NCBI RefSeq assembly: GCF_900110435.1
Contig: NZ_FODT01000002.1
Location: 62,001 to 126,000, forward strand
Source: Rhodopseudomonas pseudopalustris
GTDB lineage: Bacteria; Pseudomonadota; Alphaproteobacteria; Rhizobiales; Xanthobacteraceae
Direction: 5' to 3'
Length of the DNA: 64,000 nucleotides
Under the pieces are notes generated by a model, which was given only the letters and a program-made list of their open reading frames with translations, searched no databases and was not told the DNA's origin. The first letter of the stretch is position 1; the number at the start of each line of letters is the position of its first letter. Of the stretch, positions 37,978 to 55,768 are shown piece by piece. The translations under genes and the position numbers were made by a program.

Positions 37978-37983
37978 GACGGG

Positions 37984-38270: not shown

Positions 38271-38306
38271 AACCCTCATGTCGGACCCAATCCACGGAGG
38301 CCGATC

Positions 38307-38627: not shown

Positions 38628-38655
38628 GGCCCCCTGCAAGCCACGGAGCGTCGTC

Positions 38656-40871: not shown

Positions 40872-42048
40872 TATCACCCCACGCGACCCAGTCACGACGA
40901 CCTCGACGGCAAAGTCGATCGTGCTCAACGACACCACGCTGCGCGATGGCGAACAGGCGCCGGGCGTCGCGTTCTCTGCTGCCGAGAAGCTCGCGATCGC
41001 CCGCGCGCTGGCGCGGGCCGGCGTCCCGGAGATCGAAGCCGGAACGCCGGCGATGGGTCCCGACGAGATCGCCGCGATCCGCGCCATCGTCGAGGCCGGG
41101 TTGCCGCTGACGACGATCGCCTGGTGCCGGATGCGCACCGAAGACGTCGACGCGGCGCTGGCGGCCCGGGTGCCGATGGTCAACGTCTCGGTGCCGGTGT
41201 CGGATGTGCAGATCGCGGCCAAGCTCGGCGGCCAGCGCACCAACGCCATCGAAACGGTGAAGCGGGTGGTCGGCTATGCCCGCGACAAGGGTCTCGAGGT
41301 CGCAGTCGGCGGGGAGGATTCCTCGCGCGCCGATCCGGAGTTCCTCGCACAGGTGATCGCCACGGCGAAGGAGTCTGGCGCACGGCGGTTCCGGATCGCC
41401 GACACGCTCAGCGTGCTCGACCCCTTCAGCAGCCACAAATTGCTGGCGTCGTTGCGCGCGACTACCGATCTCGAACTTGAATTTCACGGTCATGACGACC
41501 TCGGCCTCGCCACCGCCAACACGCTGGCTGCGCTGCAGGCCGGCGCTAGCCACGCCTCGGTGACCGTGATCGGGCTCGGCGAGCGCGCCGGCAACGCCCC
41601 GCTCGAAGAGGTCGCCGTCGCGTTGAAGCAGCTCTACGGGCGCGACACAGGAATCGTGTTGTCTGAACTCGGCCATGTCGCCGATGTCGTCGCCGAGGCC
41701 GCGGCGCGCACGATTCCGCTCAACAAGGCAATCGTCGGCGAGCACGTTTTCACCCACGAGTCCGGAATTCATGTCGACGGCCTCCTCAAAGACCAGCGCA
41801 CCTATCAGTCGCTCGATCCGCGGCTGCTCGGCCGCTCCAACCGCATCGTGATCGGTAAGCATTCCGGCCTGTCGGCGATCACGTCATCGTTGGCCAAGCT
41901 CAATTTGCCGGCGACGGCGGAGGAGGCGCAGGGCGTTCTGGCGCGGGTGCGGATTCATGCGGTCGCCAACAAGGGCGCGGTCGGAAACGAGACATTGACG
42001 GCAATCTGGCGTGAGGTTCGTGACCGCGCGCTGCCGAACTGCGCCTGA
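40864..42048 (+). CDS. nifV: Homocitrate synthase NifV
   Basis: 394 residues from the ATG at 40864, inside the end of nifS. The catalytic opening is [17 protein letters not shown], followed by the metal-binding His residues in [14 protein letters not shown] and the [14 protein letters not shown] loop. It condenses acetyl-CoA and 2-oxoglutarate to homocitrate, the organic ligand of FeMo-co. There is no LeuA-type regulatory domain, as expected for NifV. Confidence 0.95.
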
Positions 42049-42094
42049 GCGCAACGCGACGCTGCGCGGCGAACAAGATGCGAAGGAGATCGAG

Positions 42095-42451
42095 ATGAGC
42101 GCGTCCCAGTTGGAAACCACAGAACCCGCCGACATCGTCGGGCAATTGCAACGCGCGGCCTCGGCCGAAGACTTCTTCGAGTTGCTCGACGTCGACTTCG
42201 ATCCGAAGGTCGTCAACGTCGCCCGGCTGCATATCCTCAAGCGCATGGGGCAGTATCTCGCCAGCGAGGATCTCGACGGTCTGCCGGTGGCGGAGACAAA
42301 GGCCCGTTGCAAGACAGTGCTGGAGCGCGCCTACGCGGACTTCGTGGAATCGTCGCCGCTGGATCAGCGCGTCTTCAAGGTCCTCAAGGATGCGGTCGCG
42401 CCGAAATCGCCGCGTCGGCCGGCTTTTGTCTCGCTCGACAATTTGAAGTAA
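42095..42451 (+). CDS. nifW: NifW, nitrogenase stabilising protein
   Basis: 118 residues from the ATG at 42095 with AAGGAGATCGAG upstream. The NifW core is ASAEDFFELLDVDFDPKVVNVARLHILKRMGQYL and RAYADFVESSPLDQRVFKVL. NifW protects or helps assemble the MoFe protein. It is the last gene of the operon and is followed by a terminator. Confidence 0.94.
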   Translation: MSASQLETTEPADIVGQLQRAASAEDFFELLDVDFDPKVVNVARLHILKRMGQYLASEDLDGLPVAETKARCKTVLERAYADFVESSPLDQRVFKVLKDAVAPKSPRRPAFVSLDNLK

Positions 42452-42482
42452 TTCGCGCGCTTCCTGCCGCATCGATCGTTTC

Positions 42483-42522
42483 GCAACCTCGGCCCGCCAC
42501 GCGGTCGGCCGAGGTTGCTTTC
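42483..42522 (+). terminator. Terminator after nifW
   Basis: A perfect 12-bp stem (GCAACCTCGGCC with GGCCGAGGTTGC) and a 12-base loop, then TTTC. It starts 32 bp after the nifW stop and separates this operon from fixABCX. Confidence 0.8.
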
Positions 42523-42588
42523 TGGCATGCGCGTCACATGACCTGAACATTTCTCTCAGACGTCGAAATCACCTGTTCGCCGGTGCGC

Positions 42589-42604
42589 TGTCGCCTTCCT
42601 GACA
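42589..42604 (+). promoter_or_regulatory. NifA site upstream of fixABCX
   Basis: TGTCGCCTTCCTGACA, a perfect TGT-N10-ACA. It ends 104 bp before the -24 block, farther than at fdxN and the iscA operon. An imperfect dyad CAAGTGTTCGACTTG follows it. Confidence 0.68.
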
Positions 42605-42708
42605 AGTGTTCGACTTGTCGGGTCGCGTTCAAGCGCCGCCAACAGCGCAAGCTCGGCGATGGCGCCCAAGCCATTGCCTCGTCGACAAAATTTCTCCTGA
42701 TCGAAAGT

Positions 42709-42724
42709 TGGTACGAGGCTTGCT
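42709..42724 (+). promoter_or_regulatory. Sigma-54 promoter of fixABCX
   Basis: TGGTACG-AGGC-TTGCT, with GG and GC at correct spacing and one change in the -24 block. Start of translation is only about 34 bp beyond, so the leader is very short. Confidence 0.75.
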
Positions 42725-42757
42725 GATGTTCTGGTGTCAGCAAGCGCGGAGCACACC

Positions 42758-43603
42758 ATGCACATCGTCGTCTGTATCAAGCAGGTCCCGGACTCGGCGC
42801 AGATCCGCGTCCATCCGGTCACCAACACGATCATGCGTCAGGGCGTTCCGACGATCATCAATCCCTATGATCTGTTCGCGCTCGAAGAGGCGCTGCGGCT
42901 GCGCGACAAATTCGGCGGCGAAGTCACCGTTCTGACGATGGGGCCGCCCTCGGCCGAGGACTCCTTGCGCAAGGCGCTCACCTTCGGCGCCAATCGCGCA
43001 GTGCTGCTCACCGATCGCTTCTTTGCCGGCGCCGATACGTTGGCGACCAGCTACGCGCTCGCCTCCGCCATCCGCAAGATCGGCGCGACCTATGGCGAGG
43101 CCGACATCGTGTTCACCGGCAAGCAGACCATCGACGGCGATACCGCCCAGGTCGGCCCGGGCATCTGCAAGCGCCTCGACTTCCTGCAGCTCACCTACGT
43201 CTCCAAGGTGGCGTCGCTCGATCTCGCCGGCCGCACCATCGAGGTCGAGCGTCGGTCCGAAGGCGGCGTGCAGGTGCTGCGCAGCCGGTTGCCCTGCCTG
43301 ATCACCATGCTCGAAGGCACCAATGAAGTGCGCCGCGGCTCGATGCTGAATGCGTTGAACGCCGCGCGCGCCGAGGTGGTGAAGTGGAGTGCCCAGGACG
43401 CCGGCGTCGAGGACATTTCGAAATGCGGCCTGCGCGGATCACCGACCGTGGTGAAGCGCGTATTCGCACCGACGGCCCGTTCCGAGAAGGCCATCGTCGT
43501 CGAGCCGGCCGGTCTGCCGCCGGCGGACGCGCTGATCGACGAGATTTTCAAGGTCCGGCCGAAGCTCGAGGCCGACATGTTCGAGCTTGCGCGTGGATTC
43601 TGA
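42758..43603 (+). CDS. fixA: FixA, electron-transfer flavoprotein beta-type subunit
   Basis: 281 residues from the ATG at 42758 (MHIVVCIKQVPDSAQIRV). It has the ETF-beta features NPYDLFALEEALRL, VLTMGPPSAEDSLRKAL, GKQTIDGDTAQVGP and the recognition-loop region near CLITMLEGTNEVRR. With FixB it forms the bifurcating flavoprotein that takes electrons from NADH and splits them between quinone (through FixC) and ferredoxin for nitrogenase. The gene is 24 bp from fixB. Confidence 0.95.
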   Translation: MHIVVCIKQVPDSAQIRVHPVTNTIMRQGVPTIINPYDLFALEEALRLRDKFGGEVTVLTMGPPSAEDSLRKALTFGANRAVLLTDRFFAGADTLATSYALASAIRKIGATYGEADIVFTGKQTIDGDTAQVGPGICKRLDFLQLTYVSKVASLDLAGRTIEVERRSEGGVQVLRSRLPCLITMLEGTNEVRRGSMLNALNAARAEVVKWSAQDAGVEDISKCGLRGSPTVVKRVFAPTARSEKAIVVEPAGLPPADALIDEIFKVRPKLEADMFELARGF

Positions 43604-43627
43604 CAACACCAACAGAGAGCCGCTTCG

Positions 43628-44734
43628 ATGAGCCAGCCAGCCAAGCCTGCCCCGCAGCCCGCCGGACGCGCCAACGCCAAGAAAGAGCTGTCCGAACACT
43701 TCAAGCAGTACAAACACGTCTGGGTGTTCGTCGAACAGGAGCGAGGCCACGTCCATCCGGTTTCCTGGGAACTGATGGGTTCCGGCCGCCGACTCGCCGA
43801 CAAGCTCGGCGTCGAACTCGCGGCGGTGGTGATCGGGCCCGCCGGCGACGCCACACGCGTCGCGGCGGCGGAGTCGTTCTGCTACGGCGCAGATCTCGCT
43901 TACATCGTCGCCGATGACGTGCTCGCCGACTATCGCAACGAATCGTACACCAAGGCGCTGACCGATCTGGTCAACACCTACAAGCCGGAGATCCTGCTGC
44001 TCGGTGCCACCACGCTCGGCCGGGACCTCGCCGGCGCCGTCGCCACCACGCTGCTGACGGGACTCACCGCGGACTGCACCGAACTCGAGGTCGACGCCGA
44101 CAATTCGCTCGCCGCGACCCGGCCGACCTTCGGCGGCTCGCTGCTCTGCACGATCTACACGCTGAATTTCCGGCCGCAGATGGCGACGGTGCGGCCGCGG
44201 GTGATGGAGATGCCGGACCGCGTCGAGAAGCCGGTCGGCCGCATCATCGAATTTCCGCTCGGCATGGTCGAAGCCGACATCGTCACCAAGGTGCTGGCGT
44301 TCGTGCCGGACCGTGACAAGGCGACTTCGAACCTGGCTTACGCCGACATCGTCGTCGCAGGCGGCATTGGGCTCGGTTCGCCGGAGAACTTCCAGCTCGT
44401 TCGGCAGCTCGCCGGGGTGCTCGGCGCCGAATATGGCTGCTCGCGGCCGCTGGTCCAGAAGGGCTGGGTCTCGGCCGACCGGCAGATCGGCCAGACCGGC
44501 AAGACCATCCGCCCGAAGCTCTACATCGCCGCCGGCATCTCCGGAGCGATCCAGCATCGCGTCGGCGTGGACGGCGCCGATCTGATCGTCGCCATCAACA
44601 CCGACAAGAATGCGCCGATCTTCGACTTCGCGCATCTGGCGATCGTCACCGACGCGATCCGGCTGTTGCCGGCGCTGACCGAAGCATTCCGCAAGCGGCT
44701 GTCGCCGCACACCCGAGACCGGATCGCAAGCTGA
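43628..44734 (+). CDS. fixB: FixB, electron-transfer flavoprotein alpha-type subunit
   Basis: 368 residues. The C-terminal FAD domain is clear: [55 protein letters not shown], then [21 protein letters not shown]. The N-terminal half is Rossmann-like ([17 protein letters not shown]). A Lys/Ala-rich leader of about 25 residues precedes the domain. It is the second gene of the operon, 11 bp before fixC. Confidence 0.95.
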
Positions 44735-44745
44735 AGGAGCTCGCC

Positions 44746-46053
44746 ATGATCGAGGAACGTTTCGATGCGATCGTGGTCGGCGCCGGCATGGCCGGAAACG
44801 CCGCCGCGCTGACAATGGCCAACCGCGGCATGAAGGTGCTGCAGATCGAGCGCGGTGAGTATCCCGGCTCGAAGAATGTCCAGGGCGCCATCCTCTACGC
44901 CGAGATGCTGGAGAAGCTGGTCCCCAACTTCCGTGAGGATGCTCCGCTGGAGCGGCATCTGGTCGAACAGCGGTTCTGGATGATGGACGAGAGGGCGCAC
45001 ACCGGCCTGCATTATCGCTCGGATGACTTCAACGAAGAGAAGCCGAACCGCTACACCATCATCCGCGCCCAGTTCGACAAGTGGTTTTCCAGCAAGGTGC
45101 AGGAGGCCGGCGCAATCGTGCTGTGCGAGACCACCGTCAAGGAGTTGGTCAAGGACGCCTATGGCCGGGTGATCGGTGTGCTCACCGATCGTGACGGCGG
45201 CGAGGTTCACGCCGACGTCGTCGTGCTGGCCGAAGGCGTCAACGGTCTGCTCGGCACCAAGGCGGATCTGCGCGAGCGGCCTTCGGCCGAGAACGTCGCG
45301 CTCGCGGTCAAGGAGATGCACTTCCTTCCGCGCGAGACCATCGAGGCGCGCTTCAACCTGAAGGGCGACGAAGGCGTGGTCATCGAGGCGGCGGGCACCA
45401 TCTCGCACGGCATGACCGGCATGGGCTTCATCTACGCCAACAAGGAGTCGATCTCGGTAGGGATCGGTTGCCTGGTGGCCGATTTCCAGAAGACTGGTGA
45501 GACGCCTTACGGTCTGCTCGAGCGTTTCAAGAAGCATCCCTCGGTCGCGCCGCTGATCGAAGGCTCCGAGGTCAAGGAATATGCCGGCCATCTCATTCCC
45601 GAGGGCGGCTACAAGGCCATCCCGCAGCTTTATGGCGATGGATGGGTTGTGGTGGGCGACGCGGCGCAGCTCAACAATGCGCTGCATCGCGAAGGCTCGA
45701 ACCTGGCGATGACCTCCGGCCGAATCGCCGGCGAGGCGATCTTTCAGGTCAAATCCCGCAAGGATCCGATGACCAAGGAAAATCTCGCGCTCTACAAGAA
45801 GATGCTCGACGCCTCTTTCGTGATCAAGGATCTGAAGAAATACAAGGATATGCCCGATCTGTTGCACATCCAGTCGAAGAACTTTTTCCTGACCTATCCG
45901 CAACTCGTCAACAAGGCGCTGCAGAATTTCGTGCGGGTCGACGGCACGCCCAAGGTCGACAAGGAGAAAGTCACGATCAAATCATTCGTGTCGGCCCGAT
46001 CGTGGGGCGGCCTGTTCGGCGACGCCTTCCGCTTCGCACGGGCCTGGCGGTGA
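44746..46053 (+). CDS. fixC: FixC, ETF:quinone oxidoreductase-like flavoprotein
   Basis: 435 residues with AAGGAG before the ATG. The N-terminal FAD motif is [22 protein letters not shown] followed by an ERG loop; [26 protein letters not shown] is the second FAD motif. It matches the ETF-QO family, shortened because the ferredoxin domain is on FixX. It would pass electrons from FixAB to the quinone pool at the membrane. Confidence 0.95.
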
Positions 46054-46093
46054 GCGGGCAACATCGGAAATCTCAAGCGCGGAGACTCAAATC

Positions 46094-46390
46094 ATGACCA
46101 CCGAAGCTCCTATTCGGGTCGAGGATAAGCTGTTCCAGAACCGCTATCTGGTCGATGTCGGTAACGCCCATATCAAGGTCAAGCCGCATACCAAGCCGTC
46201 GGCGGCGCTACTTGCGCTGTTGAAGGTATGTCCTGCCCACTGCTATGAGCTGAATACGAACGGTCAGGTGGAGCTGACGCCCGATGGCTGCGTCGAATGC
46301 GGGACCTGCAGGGTGATCGCCGAGGGCTCCGGCGACATCGAATGGAACTACCCGCGCGGCGGCTACGGCGTGCTGTTCAAGTTCGGCTGA
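46094..46390 (+). CDS. fixX: FixX, ferredoxin-like protein
   Basis: 98 residues. The cysteines occur as CPAHCYELN and [11 protein letters not shown], with the C-terminal [15 protein letters not shown] typical of FixX and the ferredoxin end of ETF-QO. It partners FixC in electron delivery to quinone. It closes the fixABCX operon and the nif/fix block; a hairpin follows. Confidence 0.94.
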
Positions 46391-46470: not shown

Positions 46471-47055
46471 TCAGGCCGCCGTGTTGAGCGCGCGCTCCAG
46501 TCCGACTCGGTTCCGCTGAGACACGAACCCGCGCCGCGCCAACCATTGCTGAACGCGCGGCGAATCGATCATCGCTTCCTCGGCGAGGCCATTGCTGAAT
46601 TCGCGCCATTGCTTGATGTGGCGCTCCGGAACGCCGATCAGCACCGGAATGCCCAGGTCGACCGCCTCGGTGATCACCTCGCCGAGGCCGTAACCTTCGG
46701 CCTCGAGTCGACCGAATTTGTTGATGATCAGCAGCTCGGGGCATTTCTGAAACGCGGCCGAGATGAGTGCGGCGGCGTCCTGCATCGCTGTGGGATCGAC
46801 CCGGCAGCCGGAAGCTTGCGGAGTCTGGTCCTCGGCGAGCTGCAGGATGATCCGCGAGGACAGTTCCTCGACTTCCATGTCGCAACGCGGGGTGCCGTCA
46901 CGCGTCGCGTGATACGGGACGATTCCCGCGACCATCGCGCCAGCGTCCCGCAATCGATAGCCGAGATCGGAAATCATGCGGCAGGCGGCGGCGCCATCCG
47001 AATACACAACACCGAGTATTGAAGGTCTGCCAGACCTGCCGAAATTGGGCCCCAT
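46471..47055 (-). CDS. DUF2478 family protein (molybdenum-linked nucleoside-phosphate-binding type)
   Basis: 194 residues from the ATG at 47055 on the minus strand; a GTG one codon earlier is possible. The opening LGVVYSDGAAACRMISDLGYRLRDAGAMVAGIVPY, the RCDMEVEELSS segment, ASGCRVDPTAMQDAA and the block ELLIINKFGRLEAEGYGLGEVI identify the DUF2478 family, usually found beside molybdate transporters. Its reaction is unknown. Here it faces fixX, so a link to Mo supply for nitrogenase is a fair inference. I found no sigma-54 promoter or NifA site upstream. Confidence 0.8.
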   Translation of the reverse strand: MGPNFGRSGRPSILGVVYSDGAAACRMISDLGYRLRDAGAMVAGIVPYHATRDGTPRCDMEVEELSSRIILQLAEDQTPQASGCRVDPTAMQDAAALISAAFQKCPELLIINKFGRLEAEGYGLGEVITEAVDLGIPVLIGVPERHIKQWREFSNGLAEEAMIDSPRVQQWLARRGFVSQRNRVGLERALNTAA

Positions 47056-47235
47056 CACTGTCCCCGCCGCGCTTCGATACGACTTTCGAATAATCGAATG
47101 CCAGAATCAGCGGGCCCCGGCTTTGCGGCAAATCAATCCCAGTCGCGTCGCAGCCCGGGCGTTGGAAAGACTGCAGATACGCGGGTTGGCGTTGCAACAA
47201 CGTCCGTTTCGGCGATTCGTTGTCGAGCGAGACGA

Positions 47236-47284: not shown

Positions 47285-47740
47285 TCAATTAGCGCCGAGC
47301 AGCGATTGCGTCGGGCGCTGTTGGGACGGCATCAGCAACGATCGCAATTTGGCGAACACCCGCAGCGCCAACCCGACCAGCTTCGGCTGGGTGCGACGGC
47401 AGAACGCGATCTTGCGGATGTGACCCTCGACATGCCAGCGCGCGCTGGCCCCGTCCTTGAAGAAAATCACGTCGCCCGGTCCGTAGCGGGTCGCCGGCAT
47501 GCCCTCGCTCTCGATCACCACCGAGCCTTCGAGGATGCAGATCGTCTCGTCGATGTCGTAGTGCCAGTTGAACTTGCCTTCGGTGCACTGCCAGATGATC
47601 GTCGACGCCATGCCATCGGCGCTGCGCGACAGCGTCGCGTTGGTCGCGGTCGGGGTGCCCTCGATGATCCACGACGGCTCGATCGGCGCCGGCTTCAGTT
47701 CGACATCGGTCTTGGAGGTGAGGATCAGGTTCGTGGACAT
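47285..47740 (-). CDS. Cupin-domain protein
   Basis: 151 residues on the minus strand. The single cupin fold is evident from FNWHYDIDETICILEGSVVIESEGMPATRYGPGDVIFFKDGASARWHV; the H-x3-D-E and later G-x5-PG-D elements correspond to the two cupin motifs, though the second motif keeps a tryptophan-histidine pair (RWHV). It resembles the DUF861/EutQ-like cupins. It lies downstream of the carrier-protein gene on the same strand with an 81-bp gap, and could be an epimerase or isomerase on a small acid. Substrate unknown. Confidence 0.78.
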   Translation of the reverse strand: MSTNLILTSKTDVELKPAPIEPSWIIEGTPTATNATLSRSADGMASTIIWQCTEGKFNWHYDIDETICILEGSVVIESEGMPATRYGPGDVIFFKDGASARWHVEGHIRKIAFCRRTQPKLVGLALRVFAKLRSLLMPSQQRPTQSLLGAN

Positions 47741-47821
47741 CGGGTCGGCTCCTGGTGATATGCGCTACGCGTGTTGTGATGGGGGCGAAGACTGATGATC
47801 CGATCAGGCAGCCTGCATCTA

Positions 47822-48094
47822 TCAGGCGGCCTGCAGTTGGAGGCGCTTGAGCACGAGGCGCTCGATGGTTTCGACGGATGTGAAGTTCTCCGGCGTGATG
47901 TCCGATTGCGGCAGCGTCATATCGAACGCGGCTTCCACTCCGAGCATCAGATTAACCATTTCCATCGAGGTGAGGCCGGCGTCGGCAAGGCGGGTGTCGG
48001 GTTTCACGCCGCCCGCCATCGCATTCTGCGCCAGGATCGTCTCGACCAGCGCGAGGATTTTGGTTTGAACCGCGGCGTTAGAGCCAGCCTGCAT
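47822..48094 (-). CDS. Acyl carrier protein-like protein
   Basis: 90 residues on the minus strand. The phosphopantetheine serine is in LADAGLTSMEMVNLML, the place of the usual DSL in carrier proteins; the rest forms the expected four-helix pattern. It is not the fatty-acid AcpP, whose motif is ADSLD. It is divergent from an acyl-CoA dehydrogenase and an amino acid:[carrier protein] ligase, which are the obvious partners for loading and oxidising an aminoacyl thioester. Confidence 0.85.
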   Translation of the reverse strand: MQAGSNAAVQTKILALVETILAQNAMAGGVKPDTRLADAGLTSMEMVNLMLGVEAAFDMTLPQSDITPENFTSVETIERLVLKRLQLQAA

Positions 48095-48453
48095 TGCAGC
48101 CTCCGTATCGTTTGTCGTTATCCGGCGTCTTAACTAATTGACGTCGACGGCGCGTTCTATCAGTCGCGATGTAATCGCAGAAAGATTGCGGAAACAATTG
48201 CGGCAGTTCGTCCACGTCGCCCATTTGAATCTTAACGCTAACGGGAAATCCGAAAATCTTCGGTAATCCCGCAATCACGGATTAACCGTCGAATTCGAAT
48301 CCAAATTGATTCACTTTGAAACTGCTCGACGCACCGGGTTCCTTTCCATAGCTTCTCACTTGCAATTTGCCGACAACTATCAGCACGGGCGATAACGCGC
48401 ATCGCCGCATCATTTCAGTCAGTACCGTGCTTGACCGAGGAGCTTTGGACGCC
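48095..48453. other. Divergent intergenic region between carrier-protein and dehydrogenase genes
   Basis: About 360 bp, richer in A and T than its flanks. It should hold both promoters. I see no NifA site, sigma-54 promoter or clear dyad. The frame entering the dehydrogenase gene is open back to a TTG at 48367, but codon use there is unlike the gene. Confidence 0.4.
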
Positions 48454-49680
48454 ATGGCGATCGTCACCGATAGCAGTGCTCGCGATATGACCCCGGCTGC
48501 GGCCGTCCCGCTCCGGCACGATATTGTCCCGTTGTCCCAGCGTGTGGCACAGGTTGCCGCCATCGCCTCTGCCGACGCAGACAGCGTCGACAAAGAGTCG
48601 CGGTTTCCGCGTGCCGCGCTCGACGCGGCGCGCCAGCACGGTTTGCTGGGCGCTCAGATTCCCGTCGAGTTCGGCGGCGAGGGCGCTTCGATCTACGACA
48701 TCACCGAGATGTGCTACGCGCTCGGTCGGGCCTGCGCCTCGACCGCGATGATCGTGGCGATGCATCAAACCAAAGTCGCCTGCCTGGTGCGGCACGGCCG
48801 CGGCAGCGCTTGGCATGAACAACTGATGCGCCGGATCGCCGGCGAGCAGATGCTGCTGGCGTCGTCGACCACCGAAGGCAACAATGGCGGCAACATCCGC
48901 GCCAGCGCCGCGGCGATCGAGGTGACCGCCGAAGGGGTGTCGCTGGTACGCAATGCGACAGTGATTTCCTACGGTGCCGAGGCCGACGGCGTGATGACGA
49001 TCGCGCGCCGCGCGTCAGACGCTTCTGCGTCGGATCAGGTGCTGGTCGTGTTCACCAAGGACGACTACACATTGACGCCGACGCTCGGCTGGGAAACGCT
49101 CGGTATGCGCGGCACCTGCAGCGCGGGTTTCGAGCTGAAGGCGAACGGTGTCGTCGGTCAGGTGTTCGCGGAGCCGTATGATCGCATTCACGCGCAGACC
49201 ATGACGCCGGTTGCGCATCTGTCCTGGTCGTCGGCCTGGGCAGGGATCGCGGCGGCTTCGGTCGAGCGCGCGCAGGCGTTCATCCGCAAGGCGGCGCGCG
49301 GCGCGGACGGCCAGATGCCGCCGGGCGCGGCCCACTACAACAGCGCGAAGATGTCGCTGCTGAAGCTGCGTGCGCTGATCTCCGCGAATCTCGACGCCTA
49401 CGCCGCGCACGAATACGACGATCGCGGTCTCGGCTCGCTGGAGTTCCAGTCGGCGATCAATCTGCTGAAGGTCGAAGCCTCCGATCTCGCCGTAGCGACG
49501 GCGATGAGCGCGATGCGGGCCTGCGGGCTGTCGGGCTATCGCAACGACGGCGATTTCACCGTGGGGCGTCACCTGCGCGACCTGCTGTCCGCGCCGCTGA
49601 TGATCAACAATGATCGCATCCTCGCCAACATCGCGACCGCCAGTCTGATGAGCGCGGTGCCGTCGAGCCTGCGCGACTGA
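48454..49680 (+). CDS. Acyl-CoA dehydrogenase family protein
   Basis: 408 residues from the ATG at 48454. Features of the fold are visible: N-terminal helical domain with GLLGAQIPVEFGGEGASIYDITEMCYALGRA, the flavin-contact segment LASSTTEGNNGGNIR, the beta domain with LGWETLGMRGTCSAGFEL and the C-terminal helical bundle ending MRACGLSGYRNDGDFTVGRHLRDLLSAPLMINNDRIL. The catalytic base expected near the C-terminus (Glu in many members) is not obvious in this last stretch. A relation to carrier-bound substrates, as in amino acid-oxidising ACADs of peptide pathways, fits the neighbours. It ends 35 bp before the ligase. Confidence 0.88.
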   Translation: MAIVTDSSARDMTPAAAVPLRHDIVPLSQRVAQVAAIASADADSVDKESRFPRAALDAARQHGLLGAQIPVEFGGEGASIYDITEMCYALGRACASTAMIVAMHQTKVACLVRHGRGSAWHEQLMRRIAGEQMLLASSTTEGNNGGNIRASAAAIEVTAEGVSLVRNATVISYGAEADGVMTIARRASDASASDQVLVVFTKDDYTLTPTLGWETLGMRGTCSAGFELKANGVVGQVFAEPYDRIHAQTMTPVAHLSWSSAWAGIAAASVERAQAFIRKAARGADGQMPPGAAHYNSAKMSLLKLRALISANLDAYAAHEYDDRGLGSLEFQSAINLLKVEASDLAVATAMSAMRACGLSGYRNDGDFTVGRHLRDLLSAPLMINNDRILANIATASLMSAVPSSLRD

Positions 49681-49715
49681 ATTCAGCGTCAACGAACCAC
49701 CGAGGAGGCCACCTC

Positions 49716-50654
49716 ATGAACGTTGCGATCCGCAATGTCCCGTCCGAGACCCACGCTCAACCGATCGATCCGCTCGATCACCTCGCCGAGCATCTGTTCC
49801 ATCGCCTCGGCGCCGATGGCGTCTATGCCCGGACCGCGTTGTACGAGGGGGTGGTCGAGAAGCTCGCGGCGCTGATCTCGAGTCATCGCGAAGCCGGCAC
49901 CGAGATGATGCGTTTCCCTCCGGTGATGAGCCGCAGTCAGCTGGAGAAGTCGGGTTATCTGAAGAGCTTCCCGAACTTGCTGGGTTGCGTCTGCGGTCTG
50001 CACGGCACCGAGCAGGAGATCAATTCGGCGATCAGCCGGTTCGATGCCGGCGGCGACTGGACGACATCGTTGTCGCCGGCCGATCTCGTGCTGTCGCCCG
50101 CGGCTTGTTACCCGGTGTATCCGATCGCTGCGAGCCGCGGGCCGCTGCCCGTGGGCGGCCTTCGTTTCGACGTCGCCGCCGATTGCTTCCGCCGCGAACC
50201 GTCCAAGCAGCTCGATCGTCTGCAGTCGTTCCGGATGCGCGAATATGTCTGCATCGGCACGCCGCAGGACGTCGCCGAGTTCCGCGAGCGCTGGATGGTG
50301 AAGGCCCAGGCGATCGCGCATGATCTCGGTCTCGCGTTCAAGGTCGATCACGCGTCCGATCCGTTCTTCGGCCGGGTCGGTCAGATGAAAGCGATCAGTC
50401 AGGTTCAGCAGGCGTTGAAATTCGAATTGCTGGTGCCGCTGCGTTCGGAAGAGCAGCCGACCGCGTGTATGAGCTTCAACTATCACCGTGAGCATTTCGG
50501 CGTGACCTGGGGCATCGACGATGCCGAAGGCAAACCCGCCCACACCGGTTGCGTCGCTTTCGGCATGGACAGACTGGCGGTGGCGCTGTTCCACACCCAC
50601 GGCATCGATCTCGCATCCTGGCCGGCGTCGGTGCGCGAGACGTTGGGGCTGTAA
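49716..50654 (+). CDS. Amino acid:[carrier protein] ligase (atypical seryl-tRNA-synthetase homologue)
   Basis: 312 residues, homologous to the catalytic core of class II aminoacyl-tRNA synthetases but without a tRNA-binding arm. Motif 2-like FDVAADCFRREPSKQLDRLQSFRMREYVCIG and motif 3-like GCVAFGMDRLAVALFHTHG are visible. The zinc-binding cysteines of atypical SerRS appear in LLGCVCGLHG, VLSPAACYPVY and related positions. Bradyrhizobium homologues are known to activate glycine or alanine and load it onto a stand-alone carrier protein instead of tRNA. The carrier protein gene at 47822-48094 is the expected acceptor. The pathway it feeds is not established. Confidence 0.88.
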   Translation: MNVAIRNVPSETHAQPIDPLDHLAEHLFHRLGADGVYARTALYEGVVEKLAALISSHREAGTEMMRFPPVMSRSQLEKSGYLKSFPNLLGCVCGLHGTEQEINSAISRFDAGGDWTTSLSPADLVLSPAACYPVYPIAASRGPLPVGGLRFDVAADCFRREPSKQLDRLQSFRMREYVCIGTPQDVAEFRERWMVKAQAIAHDLGLAFKVDHASDPFFGRVGQMKAISQVQQALKFELLVPLRSEEQPTACMSFNYHREHFGVTWGIDDAEGKPAHTGCVAFGMDRLAVALFHTHGIDLASWPASVRETLGL

Positions 50655-50730: not shown

Positions 50731-51462
50731 TTACGCCGTGTTCCCCGCGTCGATGGTCTGCACCGAGCCGGTGATATTGCGGCCGCCGTCGCCGAGCAGA
50801 TACTCGACCATGCGGGCGACGTCATCGATCTCGGGCAGTCGCCGCAGGGCGCTGCGGTTGGCGATCTTGTCGCGGCCTTCGCCGGCGAGGCCCTTGGTCA
50901 GTTCGGTATCGATAAAGCCCGGCGCGATCGCGTTGACGGTGATGCCGAGCCGGCCGACCTCGCGCGCCAACGAGCGCGTGAAGCCCAGAGCGGCGGCCTT
51001 GGTCGCGCCATAGACCGAAAGCCCGTTGTAGCCGGTCGAGCCGATGATCGACGAGATGTTGACGATGCGGCCGCCGCCGTCGGCCATCATCTGCCGGACG
51101 ATGTATTTGGTCAGGACGATCGGCGAGGTCACGTTGATCCGCACCAGCGCATCGATCTGGGTGTTGTGCATCGTCGCCAGCACGCCCTCGGTGCCGATCC
51201 CGGCATTGTTCACCAGTCCGTAGATCGAGCCGAACTCCCGTCGAAGCGATTTGACGAAGTCGGGAATGGCGTCGATCTCGCCGAGATCGAACGCCTTGAA
51301 GGCGATCGCGCCGGGGCCGGGCGCGGCCGCCGCGATCGCCGCCGTCAGTTCCTCGCTCTCGCGCCGTGCGACCGCGATCACCCCATAGCTCGCTGCGGCG
51401 AGCCGCTGCGCAATTCCAAGCCCGATACCGCGGCTGCCGCCGGTGACCACGACCCTACGCAT
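50731..51462 (-). CDS. FabG-like short-chain dehydrogenase/reductase
   Basis: 243 residues, minus strand. SDR hallmarks: VTGGSRGIGLGIAQ, NNAGIG, NISSIIGS, the YxxxK pair in YGATKAAALGF and the PGFIDTEL loop, ending VQTIDAGNTA. Closest in pattern to 3-oxoacyl-carrier-protein reductases. It is the last gene of a three-gene operon: carrier protein, AMP ligase, reductase, each overlapping the next (here by 8 bp). It probably reduces a carrier-bound or free keto intermediate. Confidence 0.86.
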   Translation of the reverse strand: MRRVVVTGGSRGIGLGIAQRLAAASYGVIAVARRESEELTAAIAAAAPGPGAIAFKAFDLGEIDAIPDFVKSLRREFGSIYGLVNNAGIGTEGVLATMHNTQIDALVRINVTSPIVLTKYIVRQMMADGGGRIVNISSIIGSTGYNGLSVYGATKAAALGFTRSLAREVGRLGITVNAIAPGFIDTELTKGLAGEGRDKIANRSALRRLPEIDDVARMVEYLLGDGGRNITGSVQTIDAGNTA

Positions 51463-52837
51463 GGCGGGCCAGCTTTCCGGAGGCGGTGACGTCGAGCTTT
51501 TCGACGAAGCTGATCATGACCGGCAGCTTGTGCGGCGGCAGAGACTGCTTGCAGTCGGCGAGGATCGCCTCGCGGATCTCCGCGGTACGACCGGCGTCGG
51601 AGACGCTCGCCAGCACGACGTCGGCGACTACCAGCGCGCCGGTGATCGGGCTACGCCGCGAGCGAATTCGCGACATCCGCACCGCCGGGTGGCGATTGAT
51701 CACGGCTTCGACTTCTTCCGGATGCACCTTGAGGCCCCCGACATTGATGATGCCGTCGCGGCGGCCGACGAAGTAATAGCGATCGTCGCGAAGCTCCACC
51801 ATGTCGCCGGTATCGACGAAGCCGTCCGCGTCGGTCAATTGCGGCGCGCTACGCCCCACATAGGTGTGGGCGGTGCGGCCGGATCGAATCCGCAGCGAGC
51901 CGTCGATCACTTTCATGTCGACGCCGTTGGCGTTGGCGCCGATCATCGCCGCGGGGAAGCCCTCGCGGCCGTCATTCACAGCGAAGCCGACGCCCGCCTC
52001 GGTGGACGCATAGGCATGGCCGATCGAGGCCTCGGGAAACGCGCGGCGCAGACTGTCGAGCACGGCCTGATCGGCGATCTCGCCGGATAGCCGAACGTAG
52101 TTCGGCCGAAAGGTCGAGAGTGCGGCGCTCATCAGCGCCTTGCGCCAATGCGACGGCGTGCCCGAGATATGGGTGACACCGCGTGCGGCGAGCCGCGCCA
52201 GATGATCGGCGATCGACTCGCCCGGCGTGGAGAGCACCATCGATCCGCCGCCCAGGATGGCGCGGAGGAAGATCTGTAGTCCGCCATAGCGGCGGATGTC
52301 GTAGAACGTCGCCCAGGTCGGCGGCGCGCCTTTCGCCGGTGCATCCGCCACGATCGCGCCGGTCAGCGCCGCCAGCGTATGCGCCACGATTTTCGGCGCG
52401 CCGGTGGTGCCGGAGGTGAGCATCAGCCAGTGTGTCGTATGTAACCGGTCGACCGGCGCAGCGGGCTGCAGCGGGAGGCGTGCCGGCACGATCAGGTCGA
52501 CGCCGAGCCCCTGCCAGCGCGCCGGATCGTCGGTGACGATGGCGTCGATCTGCGCATCGGCGATCAGCGTCGGGGCGTATTTCATGTCGAAATCGGGCGG
52601 ACACAGCAGCATCTGCCGCGCGACGCCGTCGATCTCGATCATCGCGACGCCGCTGATCAGCTGCGTCGACAGCGACAACACCACGGATCGGCCTGCGAGT
52701 TCGGCCAGCCGGCCGCCGAGCGCGGTGGCGTACGCGATTTCGCCGATCGCGAGGGTGTCGGTTCCATCGGAGAGCGTGCGGTCGCTCAGGCCGGCTGCGA
52801 GATAGTTGCGCAGCGCAACAATCTCACGCGGGGACAT
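51455..52837 (-). CDS. AMP-dependent acyl ligase
   Basis: 460 residues, minus strand. The phosphate loop is LMLTSGTTGAPKIVAHT; further on come GHAYASTEAGVGFAV, the core Asp in VDTGDMVEL and the hinge stretch YYFVGRRDGIINVGGLKVHPEEVE, with a C-terminal Lys in a GKLARHA end. It is shorter than typical acyl-CoA synthetases and lies between a carrier-protein gene and a reductase gene, overlapping both by 14 and 8 bp. It probably activates a carboxylic acid and loads it onto that carrier. Confidence 0.87.
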   Translation of the reverse strand: MSPREIVALRNYLAAGLSDRTLSDGTDTLAIGEIAYATALGGRLAELAGRSVVLSLSTQLISGVAMIEIDGVARQMLLCPPDFDMKYAPTLIADAQIDAIVTDDPARWQGLGVDLIVPARLPLQPAAPVDRLHTTHWLMLTSGTTGAPKIVAHTLAALTGAIVADAPAKGAPPTWATFYDIRRYGGLQIFLRAILGGGSMVLSTPGESIADHLARLAARGVTHISGTPSHWRKALMSAALSTFRPNYVRLSGEIADQAVLDSLRRAFPEASIGHAYASTEAGVGFAVNDGREGFPAAMIGANANGVDMKVIDGSLRIRSGRTAHTYVGRSAPQLTDADGFVDTGDMVELRDDRYYFVGRRDGIINVGGLKVHPEEVEAVINRHPAVRMSRIRSRRSPITGALVVADVVLASVSDAGRTAEIREAILADCKQSLPPHKLPVMISFVEKLDVTASGKLARHA

Positions 52838-53069
52838 TCTCGTAGGCCTTGATGAAATCGCCCAGCGTCACAGGGAAAATCGCGTCGTCGGCTGCGGTGA
52901 ACGGATCGACGCCGAGTTTGTCTTCGAGCCGTGCGACGAGGATGGCGAAGCACAACGAATCGAAGCCGGACTGATGTAGTACGAGGTCGTCAGTAAGCGC
53001 CGGCAATTTGCGGTTTTGCTCGGCGGCGATCTCTTGCATCATCGTCACAATCGTTAACCGTACAGACAT
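52824..53069 (-). CDS. Stand-alone acyl carrier protein
   Basis: 81 residues from the ATG at 53069 on the minus strand, with GGAAGG nearby upstream. The pantetheine site is SGFDSLCFAILVARLEDKLGV, a regular DSL motif. It differs from the carrier at 47822 in sequence and surroundings. Overlap with the ligase gene makes the pair a natural loading module. A GTG/ATG further upstream could lengthen the N-terminus. Confidence 0.86.
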   Translation of the reverse strand: MSVRLTIVTMMQEIAAEQNRKLPALTDDLVLHQSGFDSLCFAILVARLEDKLGVDPFTAADDAIFPVTLGDFIKAYENVPA

Positions 53070-53173: not shown

Positions 53174-54049
53174 ATGGATCCCCGCAAGGTTCGCTGCCGC
53201 GAGATCGTCGAGGCCGATATCGAGGCCGTATCACAACTGCTGACGCGCGGATTTTCCGGCCGCTCGCAGAATTACTGGCTGCGTGGTCTGCACCGCCAGG
53301 GCCAGCGTGACGTTCCGGACGGCTGCCCGCGCTACGGTTACCTGCTCGAAAACTGCGAGCGCCCCGTCGGCGTGCTGCTGTTGCTGTACACCCAGCGACT
53401 CGAGGACGGCGGGCCCAGCGTCCGGTGCAACGTGTCGAGCTGGTATGTCGACCCGGAATTTCGTAACTACGCGACGCTGCTGACGTCGGTGGCGCAGAAG
53501 AACAAGCACGTCACCTACATCAATATCTCGCCCGCGACCAACACCTGGCCGATCATCGAGGCGCAGGGCTTCCGTCGCTATTGCGGCGGCATGTTCTTCT
53601 CGGCGCCGCTGCTGTCGCGTGCCGAGAAGGGCATGACGGTCGAGAGGGTGACCGGCGCCTCTGCGGCGGTCGAAGGGCTGCCGCCGGCGGATTTCGATCT
53701 GCTCCGCAGCCATGCCGACTATGGCTGCCTGTCGCTGGTGTGCCGCGTCGGCGACGAAGCCATTCCCTTCATCATGATTCCGAAGCGGATGAAGAGCGGC
53801 CGGTTCCCGATGCCGGCGATGCAGCTCGTCTATTGCCGCGAGACCCCGGATTTCGTCCGCTGTGCCGGCGCGCTCGGCCGCGCGCTGATCTGGCGCGGCA
53901 GGCCGTTGGTGATCATCGATTCCAACGGGCCGATCGCGGGCCTCAGTGGCGTCTATACCGAATCGCGTGGCCGCAAATACTTCAAGGGCCCGAACCCGCC
54001 GCGGCTCGCCGATCTCACGGAGACTGAGCTCGTGCTGTACGGGCCGTGA
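53174..54049 (+). CDS. GNAT-like acyltransferase-family protein
   Basis: 291 residues. The N-terminal half looks like a GNAT domain: VRCREIVEADIEAVSQLLTRGFSGRSQNYWLRGL, then VGVLLLLYT, SWYVDPEFRNYATLL and ATNTWPIIEAQGFRRY, which map to the GNAT strands and acyl-CoA loop, though the R/Q-x-x-G-x-G/A loop is not clean. The second half (from about residue 150) has no family I recognise. It is divergent from the carrier-protein operon with a 104-bp gap and 39 bp upstream of the ThDP enzyme gene. Function unknown. Confidence 0.7.
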   Translation: MDPRKVRCREIVEADIEAVSQLLTRGFSGRSQNYWLRGLHRQGQRDVPDGCPRYGYLLENCERPVGVLLLLYTQRLEDGGPSVRCNVSSWYVDPEFRNYATLLTSVAQKNKHVTYINISPATNTWPIIEAQGFRRYCGGMFFSAPLLSRAEKGMTVERVTGASAAVEGLPPADFDLLRSHADYGCLSLVCRVGDEAIPFIMIPKRMKSGRFPMPAMQLVYCRETPDFVRCAGALGRALIWRGRPLVIIDSNGPIAGLSGVYTESRGRKYFKGPNPPRLADLTETELVLYGP

Positions 54050-54088: not shown

Positions 54089-55768
54089 ATGCATCAACCG
54101 CTGAAGAGCCGCACCGCCGCCGAAGCGCTGGTCGATCAATTGGTGATCAACGGCGTCGAGCACGTGTTCTGCGTGCCGGGAGAGAGCTTCCTCCCGGTGC
54201 TGAACGCGCTGCGCGATCGTGACATCACCATCACGGTCTGTCGCCATGAGGGCGGCGCGGCGATGATGGCGGAGGCGATCGGCAAGGCGACCGGGCAGCC
54301 GGGGGTGTGCTTCGTCACCCGTGGCCCGGGCGCCACCAACGCGTCGGCCGGCATTCACGTTGCGCGGCAGGACTCGACGCCGATGATCATGTTCGTCGGT
54401 CAGGTCGAGCGCGGCGTGAAGGAGCGCGAGGCGTTCCAGGAACTCGACTATCGCGCCGTGTTCGGCAGCATGACGAAATGGACCACCGAGATCGATGATC
54501 CCGAGCGCGTCACCGAGCTGGTGTCGCGCGCGTTCTATACGGCGACGAGCGGCCGCCCGGGACCGGTGGTGATCGCACTTCCGAAGGACGTGCTGAGCGA
54601 GCGTGTCAGCGTCGCCAACGCCCCGGCGTTCAAGCAGGTCGAGACCTCGCCGGGCGAAGAGGAAATGGCCGAGCTCGCGGCGCTGCTCGCAACCGCCGAA
54701 CGGCCGCTGATCGTGCTTGGCGGCAGCCGCTGGAGCCTGACGGCGCGCGAGCAGATCGAGCAGATCGCGACCCGCACCGGCCTGCCGGTCGCGACCAGCT
54801 ATCGCCGCGGTACGCTGTTCGATCCGTTGCATCCACGCTATGCGGGCGATCTCGGGCTCGGGCCCAATCCGAAGCTGGTGGCGCGCGCCAAGGCCGCGGA
54901 TCTGTTGGTGCTGGTCGGCGGTCGGCTCGGCGAAATTCCGTCGCAGGGCTATGCGCTGCTCGACAGCCCCGCGCCGCTGACCAGGCTGGTGCACATCCAC
55001 CCTGGCGCCGAAGAGCTGGGCCGGGTGTATCGTCCGCAATTGGCGATTCACGCGTCGCCCGCGCGTTTTGTCGCGGCGCTGGCGCGGCTCGACATCGCGA
55101 CCAACCCGTCCTGGCGGGAGGCGGCGGATGCGGCGCATGCCGACTATCTCGCCTGGACCGAAACCGCGACGCCGCAGCCCGGCGACGTCAATCTCGGCGA
55201 AGTCATGACCTGGCTGCGCGACAACGTTCCCGCGGATACGATCCTGTGCAACGGCGCCGGCAACTACGCGTCCTGGATCCACCGGTTCTATCGCTTCCGC
55301 AACTATATGACCCACATCGCGCCGACCTCGGCCTCGATGGGCTACGGAATGCCGGCGGCGATCGCGATGCAGCGGCTGCATCCGGAGCGGCTGGTGCTCT
55401 CGGTCAATGGCGACGGCGACTTCCTGATGAGCGGGCAGGAATTCGCGATCGCGGTGCAGTACAGCCTGCCGATCATCGTGGTGGTCTGCGACAACGGCAT
55501 GTACGGCACCATCCGGATGCATCAGGAGCGTGAGTTTCCGGGACGCGTCGCCGCGACCGAACTGCACAATCCGGATTTCGCGGCCTATGCCCGCGCGTTC
55601 GGCGGCTTCGGCGCCAATGTCGAGCGAACCGCCGACTTCCCCGCCGCGTTTGCAGCGGCGCGGGAATCCGGCCTGCCGTCGATCATCCATCTCAAGATCG
55701 ACGCCGACGCGATCCTGCCCGGCGCGACTCTGTCGGGCATCCGCAAGACGGCGCTGGAAAAGGCGTGA
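54089..55768 (+). CDS. Thiamine diphosphate enzyme, acetolactate synthase-like
   Basis: 559 residues. Typical of the ALS/IlvB group: N-terminal GESFLPVLNALRD and the catalytic Glu in CRHEGGAAMMAEA, middle domain, then the ThDP site GDGDFLMSGQEFAIAVQYSLPIIVVVCDNG. No regulatory-subunit gene (ilvH) follows, so it is unlikely to be the housekeeping enzyme. It may decarboxylate a 2-oxo acid or join two of them in the local pathway. It is followed by a long gene-free stretch with repeats. Confidence 0.87.
   Translation: MHQPLKSRTAAEALVDQLVINGVEHVFCVPGESFLPVLNALRDRDITITVCRHEGGAAMMAEAIGKATGQPGVCFVTRGPGATNASAGIHVARQDSTPMIMFVGQVERGVKEREAFQELDYRAVFGSMTKWTTEIDDPERVTELVSRAFYTATSGRPGPVVIALPKDVLSERVSVANAPAFKQVETSPGEEEMAELAALLATAERPLIVLGGSRWSLTAREQIEQIATRTGLPVATSYRRGTLFDPLHPRYAGDLGLGPNPKLVARAKAADLLVLVGGRLGEIPSQGYALLDSPAPLTRLVHIHPGAEELGRVYRPQLAIHASPARFVAALARLDIATNPSWREAADAAHADYLAWTETATPQPGDVNLGEVMTWLRDNVPADTILCNGAGNYASWIHRFYRFRNYMTHIAPTSASMGYGMPAAIAMQRLHPERLVLSVNGDGDFLMSGQEFAIAVQYSLPIIVVVCDNGMYGTIRMHQEREFPGRVAATELHNPDFAAYARAFGGFGANVERTADFPAAFAAARESGLPSIIHLKIDADAILPGATLSGIRKTALEKA

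What the first reader, a model, noticed from the sequence alone, without database searches (positions are those of the whole stretch)
47285..50654. Amino acid:[carrier protein] ligase with its own carrier protein, dehydrogenase and cupin
The sequence shows a tRNA-synthetase-like ligase without tRNA arm, a carrier protein with a GLTSME site, an acyl-CoA dehydrogenase and a cupin in two divergent units. Ligases of this type are known to load Gly or Ala onto carrier proteins, but the end product is not known to me. The dehydrogenase next to the ligase suggests oxidation of an aminoacyl-carrier thioester, and the cupin a later step. This is the best candidate for an undescribed small pathway in the window.
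Basis: partly seen in the sequence, partly recalled or inferred. Interest (0 to 1): 0.78.

Follow-up and report, generated by a model that had tools for sequence, protein, structure and literature searches.

The report
Two-carrier pathway around glycine-loading ligase

Summary
The ligase is not new: it is 83% identical to Bradyrhizobium Bll0957, the solved amino acid:[carrier protein] ligase 1, and the carrier matches its solved partner. The boundary is wrong. Ligase, carrier and ACAD-fold flavoenzyme stay together in 80 of 80 named close relatives; the cupin stays beside them only in Rhodopseudomonas, 7 of 80. The steady partner is an ORF outside the finding (53174-54049) that hits no Pfam or NCBIfam model but is predicted to be a tandem GNAT acyltransferase. 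In a sample of 199 genomes of the order all 11 with this ligase clade carry the GNAT and an AMP-ligase (51455-52837) that has its own second carrier; GNAT and AMP-ligase mark the same 12 genomes, even where the genes lie far apart. A sister ligase clade has the unrelated papain-like DUF1839 in that slot, 25 of 25. Whether the 'dehydrogenase' is one is open. Best reading: a two-carrier, NRPS-free pathway with a GNAT-made amide or ester. Product and order of steps are inferred.

The parts
47285..47740 (-). cupin (Cupin_3/EutQ-like); accessory, place in the pathway uncertain
   Evidence: beside the ligase in 7 of 80 named loci, all Rhodopseudomonas; also in the clusters L115, L190, L191, L192 and in L214; elsewhere in g2 genomes
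47822..48094 (-). carrier protein 1 (CP1), Ppant serine in AGLTSMEM; amino acid carrier
   Evidence: PF00550 E 1.3e-5; PDB 4h2s_C aminoacyl carrier protein 1, E 1.3e-28; 80 of 80 named loci
48454..49680 (+). ACAD-fold flavoenzyme (ORF open from TTG 48367; ATG 48454 assumed); predicted oxidation or oxygenation of the aminoacyl group on CP1
   Evidence: 80 of 80 named loci
49716..50654 (+). amino acid:[carrier protein] ligase, orthologue of Bll0957 (83.3% identical)
   Evidence: NF005479 above cut-off; PDB 3mey/4h2s E 1.7e-184; identity 260 of 312
50731..51462 (-). short-chain dehydrogenase/reductase, third gene of the CP2 operon (8-base overlap with the AMP-ligase gene)
   Evidence: PF00106; beside the AMP-ligase in the 6 Rhodopseudomonas loci that reach it and in the 15 other fetched loci that hold it; overlap
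51455..52837 (-). AMP-forming acyl or aminoacyl ligase, predicted to load CP2
   Evidence: PF00501/PF13193; MenE and A-domain models, below cut-off; in 12 of 199 genomes of the order, the same 12 as the GNAT
52824..53069 (-). carrier protein 2 (CP2), SGFDSLCF; 14-base overlap with the AMP-ligase gene
   Evidence: PF00550, 21.3 bits, just over the cut-off of 20.8; relative beside the AMP-ligase in 15 other fetched loci; overlap
53174..54049 (+). tandem GNAT-fold acyltransferase, divergent from CP2 (104 bases between)
54089..55768 (+). thiamine-diphosphate enzyme (PRK08199); accessory, recurrent
   Evidence: recurs in L115, L190, L192, L194, L195, L200, L214, L215 and L070
56507..57460 (-). class IV (BCAT-like) aminotransferase; accessory, recurrent; start uncertain
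   Evidence: PF01063, PRK13356; L115, L191, L192, L214
57457..59361 (-). FATP2/long-chain acyl-CoA synthetase-like enzyme; recurrent; start uncertain
   Evidence: PRK08279; PDB 9vzp FATP2 E 8.1e-136; near CP2/AMP-ligase/SDR in L194-L196, L201-L203, L212
59549..60853 (+). MetY-type Cys/Met PLP enzyme; recurrent, perhaps only housekeeping
   Evidence: PF01053; L115-L117, L191, L214, L064
60869..61870 (+). homoserine O-succinyltransferase-like protein; recurrent, perhaps only housekeeping
   Evidence: PF04204; L115-L117, L191, L214, L064

Best explanation
The finding is one half of a two-carrier biosynthetic pathway without NRPS or PKS. (1) The SerRS-derived ligase activates an amino acid, most likely glycine, and loads it on CP1; shown by others for the Bradyrhizobium orthologue (recalled; the solved ligase-carrier pair is in the PDB). 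(2) The ACAD-fold flavoenzyme oxidises or oxygenates the aminoacyl group on CP1; inferred: it is a partner common to both ligase clades, so its substrate is probably the carrier-bound amino acid itself. (3) The AMP-ligase loads a second, unknown acid on CP2 and the SDR adjusts its oxidation state; inferred from the overlapping CP2-AMP-ligase-SDR operon. (4) The tandem GNAT transfers a carrier-bound acyl group, most likely that on CP2, to an amine or hydroxyl acceptor, possibly the amino group delivered through CP1, and so releases an N-acyl amino acid type product; inferred. In the sister clade steps 1-2 are kept but a papain-like DUF1839 protein takes the transfer slot. Cupin, thiamine-diphosphate enzyme, aminotransferase, FATP-like synthetase and MetY/HTS-like genes are recurrent but optional suppliers or tailoring steps.
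For: Ligase and CP1 match a solved, interacting pair. In the same 199 genomes of the order: ligase clade A in 11, all with GNAT (E below 1e-30) and AMP-ligase (E below 1e-50); the GNAT and AMP-ligase sets are identical, 12 genomes (Fisher 3e-17 and 2e-19, not corrected for relatedness). Further 32 ligase genomes: 6 of 6 clade-A genomes have both; 1 of the other 26 (G191) has both. Family sample of 149: 12 of 13 clade-A genomes have the AMP-ligase; of 11 AMP-ligase genomes retested 10 have the GNAT, the miss being the weak match G661, and 0 of 9 others have it. In g2 (Bradyrhizobium-type) genomes the AMP-ligase, CP2, SDR and FATP-like genes sit at a distant second locus yet are kept, and two g2 genomes without the ligase lack GNAT and AMP-ligase too. 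CP2 and GNAT are divergent neighbours in the window and in 8 of the 15 fetched loci that hold CP2. Remote GNAT relatives in two f105 loci also sit beside a carrier and an AMP-ligase. GNAT fold. Precedent for AMP-ligase + carrier + GNAT transfer: SbzL/SbzG/SbzI in SB-203208 (PMC6331615, passages). Expression: bll0957 and bll0958 rise together in a B. diazoefficiens phaR mutant under low oxygen (PMC10888616, table passage).
Against: No activity was tested. GNAT and AMP-ligase occur without clade-A ligase in G563 (order sample), G191 (extra genomes; it has a clade-B ligase), G679 and G680 (family sample), so the CP2-GNAT half can exist without this ligase and the halves may be separable. G635 has the ligase but neither partner, though its assembly is 66% complete. 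In Bradyrhizobium the GNAT follows the ligase gene rather than CP2, and in 7 of the 15 fetched CP2 loci GNAT is not CP2's divergent neighbour, so the donor carrier is not decided. The remote ligases of the extra genomes have no AMP-ligase and at best weak GNAT hits. Co-occurrence counts are not independent of descent. The ligase tree separates GNAT and DUF1839 types with only moderate support (66/63 and 86/84), and G191, labelled DUF1839 type there, also has a GNAT elsewhere.
Confidence: 0.5

Rival explanations
1. Cell-surface decoration: the carrier-bound, oxidised amino acid is transferred to an amino group of a surface sugar or lipid (Iyer and Aravind's prediction for the family), with the GNAT in place of the DUF1839 transferase.
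For: Published prediction for the Agrobacterium neighbourhood (PMC2922099, note in proof, passages); DUF1839 beside the ligase in 25 of 25 clade-B genomes of the order sample and a GH2/mannosidase-like gene in the clade-B loci fetched; PF01943 polysaccharide flippase-like genes near the cluster in the window (62478-63836), L190, L191 and L200.
Against: No DUF1839 in the window genome or in any of the 11 clade-A genomes; no GH2 relative found in the clade-A loci examined; it does not account for the AMP-ligase/CP2/SDR operon.
Confidence: 0.2
2. N-acyl amino lipid pathway: the FATP-like synthetase and AMP-ligase/CP2 deliver a fatty acyl group, the SDR makes it 3-hydroxy, and the GNAT N-acylates an amine, as FeeM or OlsB-type enzymes do (OlsB from recall); CP1-glycine is the head group.
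For: FATP2-like enzyme near CP2/AMP-ligase/SDR in three g2 genomes, G059, G004, G563 and G191; the GNAT model resembles N-myristoyltransferases among other tandem GNATs; FeeM is named as a carrier-dependent GNAT.
Against: The AMP-ligase is nearest, weakly, to MenE, A-domain and ACSM2A-type enzymes; no FATP-like relative was found in L113, L114 and L215, and only a 25% one in L190 and L200.
Confidence: 0.2
3. Two unrelated pathways that sit together by chance in Rhodopseudomonas: ligase-CP1-flavoenzyme and CP2-AMP-ligase-SDR-GNAT.
For: Four genomes have GNAT and AMP-ligase without clade-A ligase: G563, G191, G679, G680.
Against: Ligase, GNAT and AMP-ligase are kept together in five family groups (f1, f2, f6, f101, f110) and are kept or lost together even when far apart in g2 genomes.
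Confidence: 0.1

Closest known systems
Amino acid:[carrier protein] ligase 1 (Bll0957) with aminoacyl carrier protein 1, Bradyrhizobium diazoefficiens (PDB 3mey, 4h2s)
   Same: Ligase 83.3% identical over its full length; carrier homologous over 83 residues; order CP1-flavoenzyme-ligase kept in Bradyrhizobium loci
   Different: Nothing essential seen in the loading step; this report adds the conserved GNAT and the distant CP2/AMP-ligase/SDR partners
Agrobacterium-type neighbourhood Atu2571-Atu2574 (carrier, redox enzyme, ligase, DUF1839; gene roles partly from recall)
   Same: In clade-B loci CP, ACAD-fold enzyme and ligase come in the same order; CP1 matches 2jq4 = Atu2571
   Different: Papain-like DUF1839 and a GH2-like protein instead of the GNAT; AMP-ligase in 0 of 25 clade-B genomes of the order sample, though in G191 outside it
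SB-203208/altemicidin cluster (SbzL/SbzI and SbzB/SbzC with carriers SbzG, SbzK)
   Same: Two adenylate-forming enzymes, two carriers, GNATs that take the acyl group from a carrier, a cupin and a tRNA-synthetase-like enzyme
   Different: Different organism and synthetase class (SbzA is IleRS-like and uses Ile-tRNA); no sequence link tested; substrates here unknown
ACAD-fold flavin enzymes (acyl-CoA dehydrogenases; DszC/TdsC; KijD3, DnmZ, nitrososynthase; ColB1)
   Different: No Glu at the MCAD-type position (shared with the dehydrogenase 7p98); own invariant motifs

Membership tests
amino acid:[carrier protein] ligase | class II synthetase core of the atypical SerRS type without tRNA-binding arm | tested here: met
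   PF00587; NF005479 above cut-off; aligns only to the C-terminal part of SerRS models
amino acid:[carrier protein] ligase | cognate carrier protein gene with a phosphopantetheine serine next door | tested here: met
   carrier near the ligase in 80 of 80 named loci
amino acid:[carrier protein] ligase | ATP-dependent loading of glycine or another small amino acid on the carrier | not testable with these tools
   Known for the orthologue only from recall, a review passage and PDB titles
acyl-CoA dehydrogenase (activity) | ACAD fold | tested here: met
acyl-CoA dehydrogenase (activity) | catalytic Glu of the MCAD/SCAD type (IYEGT motif; its role from recall) | tested here: not met
   Profile alignment to 8i4p: the Glu aligns with Ile in 'saplminndRi', but that stretch is a weak domain match (i-Evalue 0.018); 7p98, titled a dehydrogenase, has Thr there, so the feature is not universal. 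MI.NDR motif in at least 95% of 37 aligned sequences
acyl-CoA dehydrogenase (activity) | alternative catalytic Glu on helix G (isovaleryl-CoA and prolyl-carrier dehydrogenase type) | tested here: inconclusive
   The region carries an invariant His and Trp (HxxW), but no isovaleryl-type alignment of this region was printed; the position is recalled
GNAT acyltransferase | GNAT fold | tested here: met
GNAT acyltransferase | match to a curated GNAT sequence model | tested here: not met
   no Pfam or NCBIfam family up to E 0.01
GNAT acyltransferase | acyl transfer from CoA or carrier | not testable with these tools
   no assay
DUF1839-type aminoacyl-carrier pathway | DUF1839 protein next to the ligase | tested here: not met
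   PF08893 absent from the window genome and the other 10 clade-A genomes; beside the ligase in 25 of 25 clade-B genomes
Sbz-type carrier-dependent GNAT transfer | AMP-ligase, carrier and GNAT genes linked | tested here: met
   CP2, AMP-ligase and GNAT within about 5 kb in the window and in L115, L190-L192, L194-L196, L200, L212, L215; not so in L113, L114 and the g2 loci L201-L203
Sbz-type carrier-dependent GNAT transfer | GNAT takes its acyl group from the carrier, not CoA | not testable with these tools
   no assay

The most novel reading that the evidence does not exclude
A minimal assembly line of free-standing parts: a tandem GNAT joins two carrier-bound blocks, condensing the acid on CP2 with the amino group of an oxidised glycyl unit on CP1, so that an exapted tRNA synthetase core, an ACAD-fold flavoenzyme and a GNAT replace a peptide synthetase. 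Within one ligase family the transfer step has been filled by two unrelated folds, GNAT or papain-like, with two different product classes.
Probability: 0.15. Interest if true: 0.8.

Novelty: new variant of a known kind. Interest (0 to 1): 0.55.

Why it matters
Amino acid:[carrier protein] ligases have had solved structures for over a decade (dates from recall), but a 2022 review still calls the biological role of the loaded carrier unknown (PMC9437257, passages). The present data give a definite partner list (GNAT, AMP-ligase, CP2, SDR, flavoenzyme) and show that two ligase clades go with two different transferases, which makes the question directly testable with a handful of purified proteins and four deletions in laboratory strains of Rhodopseudomonas or Bradyrhizobium.

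Tried and rejected
Rejected: that the four genes alone are the pathway; that the cupin is an obligatory and specific member: a cupin match is present in 19 of 21 clade-A genomes tested (absent in G663 and G709) and in 5 of 11 others (G191, G689, G406, G514 and weakly G028). Not supported: an N-N bond route like azaserine or s56-p1; the review passages read (PMC11705231) tie that route to lysine N-hydroxylation and hydrazine synthetases such as Spb40; I did not search the cluster or genome for a lysine hydroxylase. Flavin reductase 61867-62388 as partner of the flavoenzyme: among the 23 fetched loci compared it is found in two, L191 and L214, so left open. Electron transfer to the neighbouring FixABCX: fixC is near the ligase only in Rhodopseudomonas (6 of 7; 0 of 73 others).

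Led nowhere: promoter/terminator scan, 0 promoter-like sites and 6 terminator-like sites against 6.4 in shuffles; inverted repeats in the divergent region, none; PDB sequence search with the GNAT-like protein, two hits at E 1.5 and 1.6; ten literature searches, in whose listings I saw no paper on the product or on the GNAT and AMP-ligase partners. Papers seen as passages: PMC2922099, PMC9437257, PMC10888616, PMC10318531, PMC6331615, PMC11705231, and without use here PMC12930378 and PMC6594144 and PMC11941606, where Atu2573 is only named as a co-expression hub gene; all others as search listings. The library holds open-licence papers only and one primary ligase paper was asked for and not held, so absence from print is not shown. 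Structure aligners do not separate dehydrogenase from monooxygenase for the flavoenzyme (rows tied); families not listed there are not excluded. Rows dropped before counts: the weak AMP-ligase hit of G661 (E 3.6e-54, 39%) was left out of the family Fisher test; GNAT hits above E 1e-30 (six f105 genomes, G458, G107) were left out of the order count; three remote ligases (32-37%) were counted in neither clade.

Full report
Observation. The four ORFs are real and placed as stated. The ligase scores 477.6 bits on NCBIfam NF005479, amino acid--[acyl-carrier-protein] ligase (cut-off 357), and aligns only to the C-terminal part of the archaeal-type SerRS models. PDB sequence search finds Bll0957, amino acid--[acyl-carrier-protein] ligase 1 (3mey and others, E 1.7e-184; 260 of 312 residues identical), and for the carrier its solved partner, aminoacyl carrier protein 1 (4h2s chain C, E 1.3e-28), then Atu2571. 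The loading step is therefore that of a known enzyme pair. That Bll0957 prefers glycine is recalled; a primary paper was asked for and not held. A 2022 review lists Gly, Ala and Ser for the class and says the role of the loaded carrier remains unknown (PMC9437257, passages).

What stays together. I compared the window genes with 80 named loci (7 Rhodopseudomonas, 73 others, of which 71 are titled Bradyrhizobium). CP1, flavoenzyme and ligase are present in 80 of 80. The cupin is present in 7 of 80, all Rhodopseudomonas. The ORF 53174-54049 has a relative in 79 of 80; the miss, L007, is a contig that ends just after the ligase. In the 73 others it lies directly downstream of the ligase. In Rhodopseudomonas a minus-strand operon CP2-AMP-ligase-SDR (genes overlapping by 14 and 8 bases in the window) lies between ligase and ORF.

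Phylogenetic profile. In one fixed sample of 199 genomes of the order, the ligase is found in 39: 11 clade A (60-100% identical to the window), 25 clade B (45-54% band; 46-54 as printed), 3 remote (32-37%). The GNAT at E below 1e-30 is found in 12: the 11 clade-A genomes plus G563. The AMP-ligase at E below 1e-50 is found in the same 12. DUF1839 (PF08893) is found in 25, exactly the clade-B genomes, each time within 250 bases of the ligase match. Fisher values are 3e-17 to 3e-32 and ignore relatedness. Six f105 genomes with clade-B ligase have remote GNAT relatives (E 1e-16 to 1e-21), and two further weak hits exist.

Further genomes. Of the 44 ligase genomes of the phylum sample, 32 were not in the order sample. 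Of these, 6 of 6 clade-A genomes have GNAT and AMP-ligase; of the other 26, one (G191, clade-B ligase) has both, and 13 remote-ligase genomes have only weak GNAT-like hits (E 9e-5 to 6e-18) and no AMP-ligase. In 149 genomes of the family, 13 have clade-A ligase and 12 of these have the AMP-ligase; the exception G635 is 66% complete. G679 and G680, and weakly G661, have the AMP-ligase without a ligase match at E below 1e-50. Of 20 of these genomes tested for the GNAT, 10 have it: all ten carry the strong AMP-ligase; G661, G635, the six clade-B genomes and two g1 genomes without ligase lack it. So GNAT and AMP-ligase are the tightest pair; the ligase joins them in most but not all genomes.

Second locus. 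In g2 genomes (read as Bradyrhizobium) the AMP-ligase lies far from the ligase (for example 2.02 Mb against 0.60 Mb in G035), in 3 of 3 fetched in a unit FATP-like synthetase-CP2-AMP-ligase-SDR. Two g2 genomes, G200 and G217, lack ligase, GNAT and AMP-ligase alike. Joint presence and absence of genes that are not neighbours argues for one pathway.

Extended cluster. Elsewhere the set is often one cluster: L115 (f2), L191 (f6), L192 (f101), L190 and L200 (f110) carry most of cupin, CP1, flavoenzyme, ligase, SDR, AMP-ligase, CP2, GNAT, thiamine-diphosphate enzyme, class IV aminotransferase, FATP-like synthetase, MetY and HTS-like genes. Families are the tool's unnamed labels. CP2 and GNAT are divergent neighbours in the window and in L115, L190, L191, L192, L194, L195, L200 and L215, 8 of the 15 fetched loci with CP2 outside Rhodopseudomonas. 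In two f105 loci examined, L197 and L198, a remote GNAT relative sits beside a carrier and an AMP-ligase. Both favour CP2 as the GNAT's donor; in Bradyrhizobium the GNAT instead follows the ligase.

Two transferase slots. A ligase tree of 52 rows needs only two label changes to separate GNAT type (19), DUF1839 type (31) and remote (2), but supports are moderate (66/63, 86/84), the tool warns of long branches, and G191, labelled DUF1839 type, also has a GNAT elsewhere. DUF1839 is classed as papain-like (PMC10318531, passages), hence unrelated to GNAT. Iyer and Aravind proposed that Atu2574 (which I take to be this DUF1839 family from its place beside the ligase) joins the amino acid to a surface sugar and that the redox enzyme probably oxygenates it (PMC2922099, passages). 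Their prediction may hold for clade B; clade A has neither DUF1839 nor a GH2 relative in the loci examined.

Mechanism. The closest worked example for the second half is SB-203208 biosynthesis, where adenylate-forming enzymes load carriers and GNATs SbzI and SbzC take the acyl group from the carrier (PMC6331615, passages). I propose the same logic here, with the synthetase-derived ligase feeding a second carrier. Shown: genes, families, predicted folds, co-occurrence. Inferred: substrates, order, donor carrier, product.

Expression. In B. diazoefficiens bll0957 (ligase) and bll0958 (flavoenzyme) are listed among genes raised at transcript and protein level in a phaR mutant at 0.5% oxygen (fold change 3.0 each; log2 fold change 2.5 and 1.7) (PMC10888616, table passage). 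This shows the genes are expressed and respond together; it does not give a function.

Verdict. The ligase is a known kind; the pathway around it is an uncharacterised variant with a clear partner list. Interest 0.55.

Noticed in passing
window 28765-46390: Nitrogenase-like and fixABCX-like genes run up to the cluster; fixC adjoins the ligase cluster only in Rhodopseudomonas loci (6 of 7, 0 of 73 others). nif and fix names are read from the ORF translations, not tested by family search.
   Followed up: partly
window 46471-47058 (-): DUF2478 (PF10649) ORF between fixX and the cupin, in 7 of 7 Rhodopseudomonas loci and 0 of 73 others.
   Followed up: no
window 62478-63836 (-); L190 15899-17245; L191 3704-5071; L200 17290-18624; L213 7265-8623: PF01943-type polysaccharide flippase-like genes near the cluster; L213, beside a second GNAT copy in G187, has a 30% BLAST relative of the window gene that itself hits no Pfam model. 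Possible exporter or flippase of the product.
   Followed up: partly
L197 5685-9608, L198 6772-9426: In two f105 genomes a remote GNAT relative (22-28%) sits beside a carrier (PF00550) and an AMP-ligase, in L197 also a PLP decarboxylase, away from the ligase: perhaps an independent carrier/AMP-ligase/GNAT unit.
   Followed up: partly
L134 7134-9846, L140 8441-11043: Remote, longer (about 400-440 aa) ligase relatives have a GNAT-like gene (about 370 aa, 25% to the window GNAT) and in L140 a carrier next door, so ligase-GNAT linkage may be older than the order.
   Followed up: partly
L144 8375-11866: In G102 a 319-aa ligase relative is followed by a reductase-like protein (PF07993), a phosphopantetheinyl transferase, a rubrerythrin-like protein and a carrier: another uncharacterised ligase neighbourhood.
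   Followed up: no
L026 and L029 (Bradyrhizobium japonicum SZCCT0153): The ligase locus occurs twice on one contig with the same identities, perhaps a recent duplication or an assembly repeat.
   Followed up: no
L059 (record titled Frankia sp. RB7): The ligase locus looks like Bradyrhizobium (84% ligase, same gene order), so the record title may be wrong.
   Followed up: no
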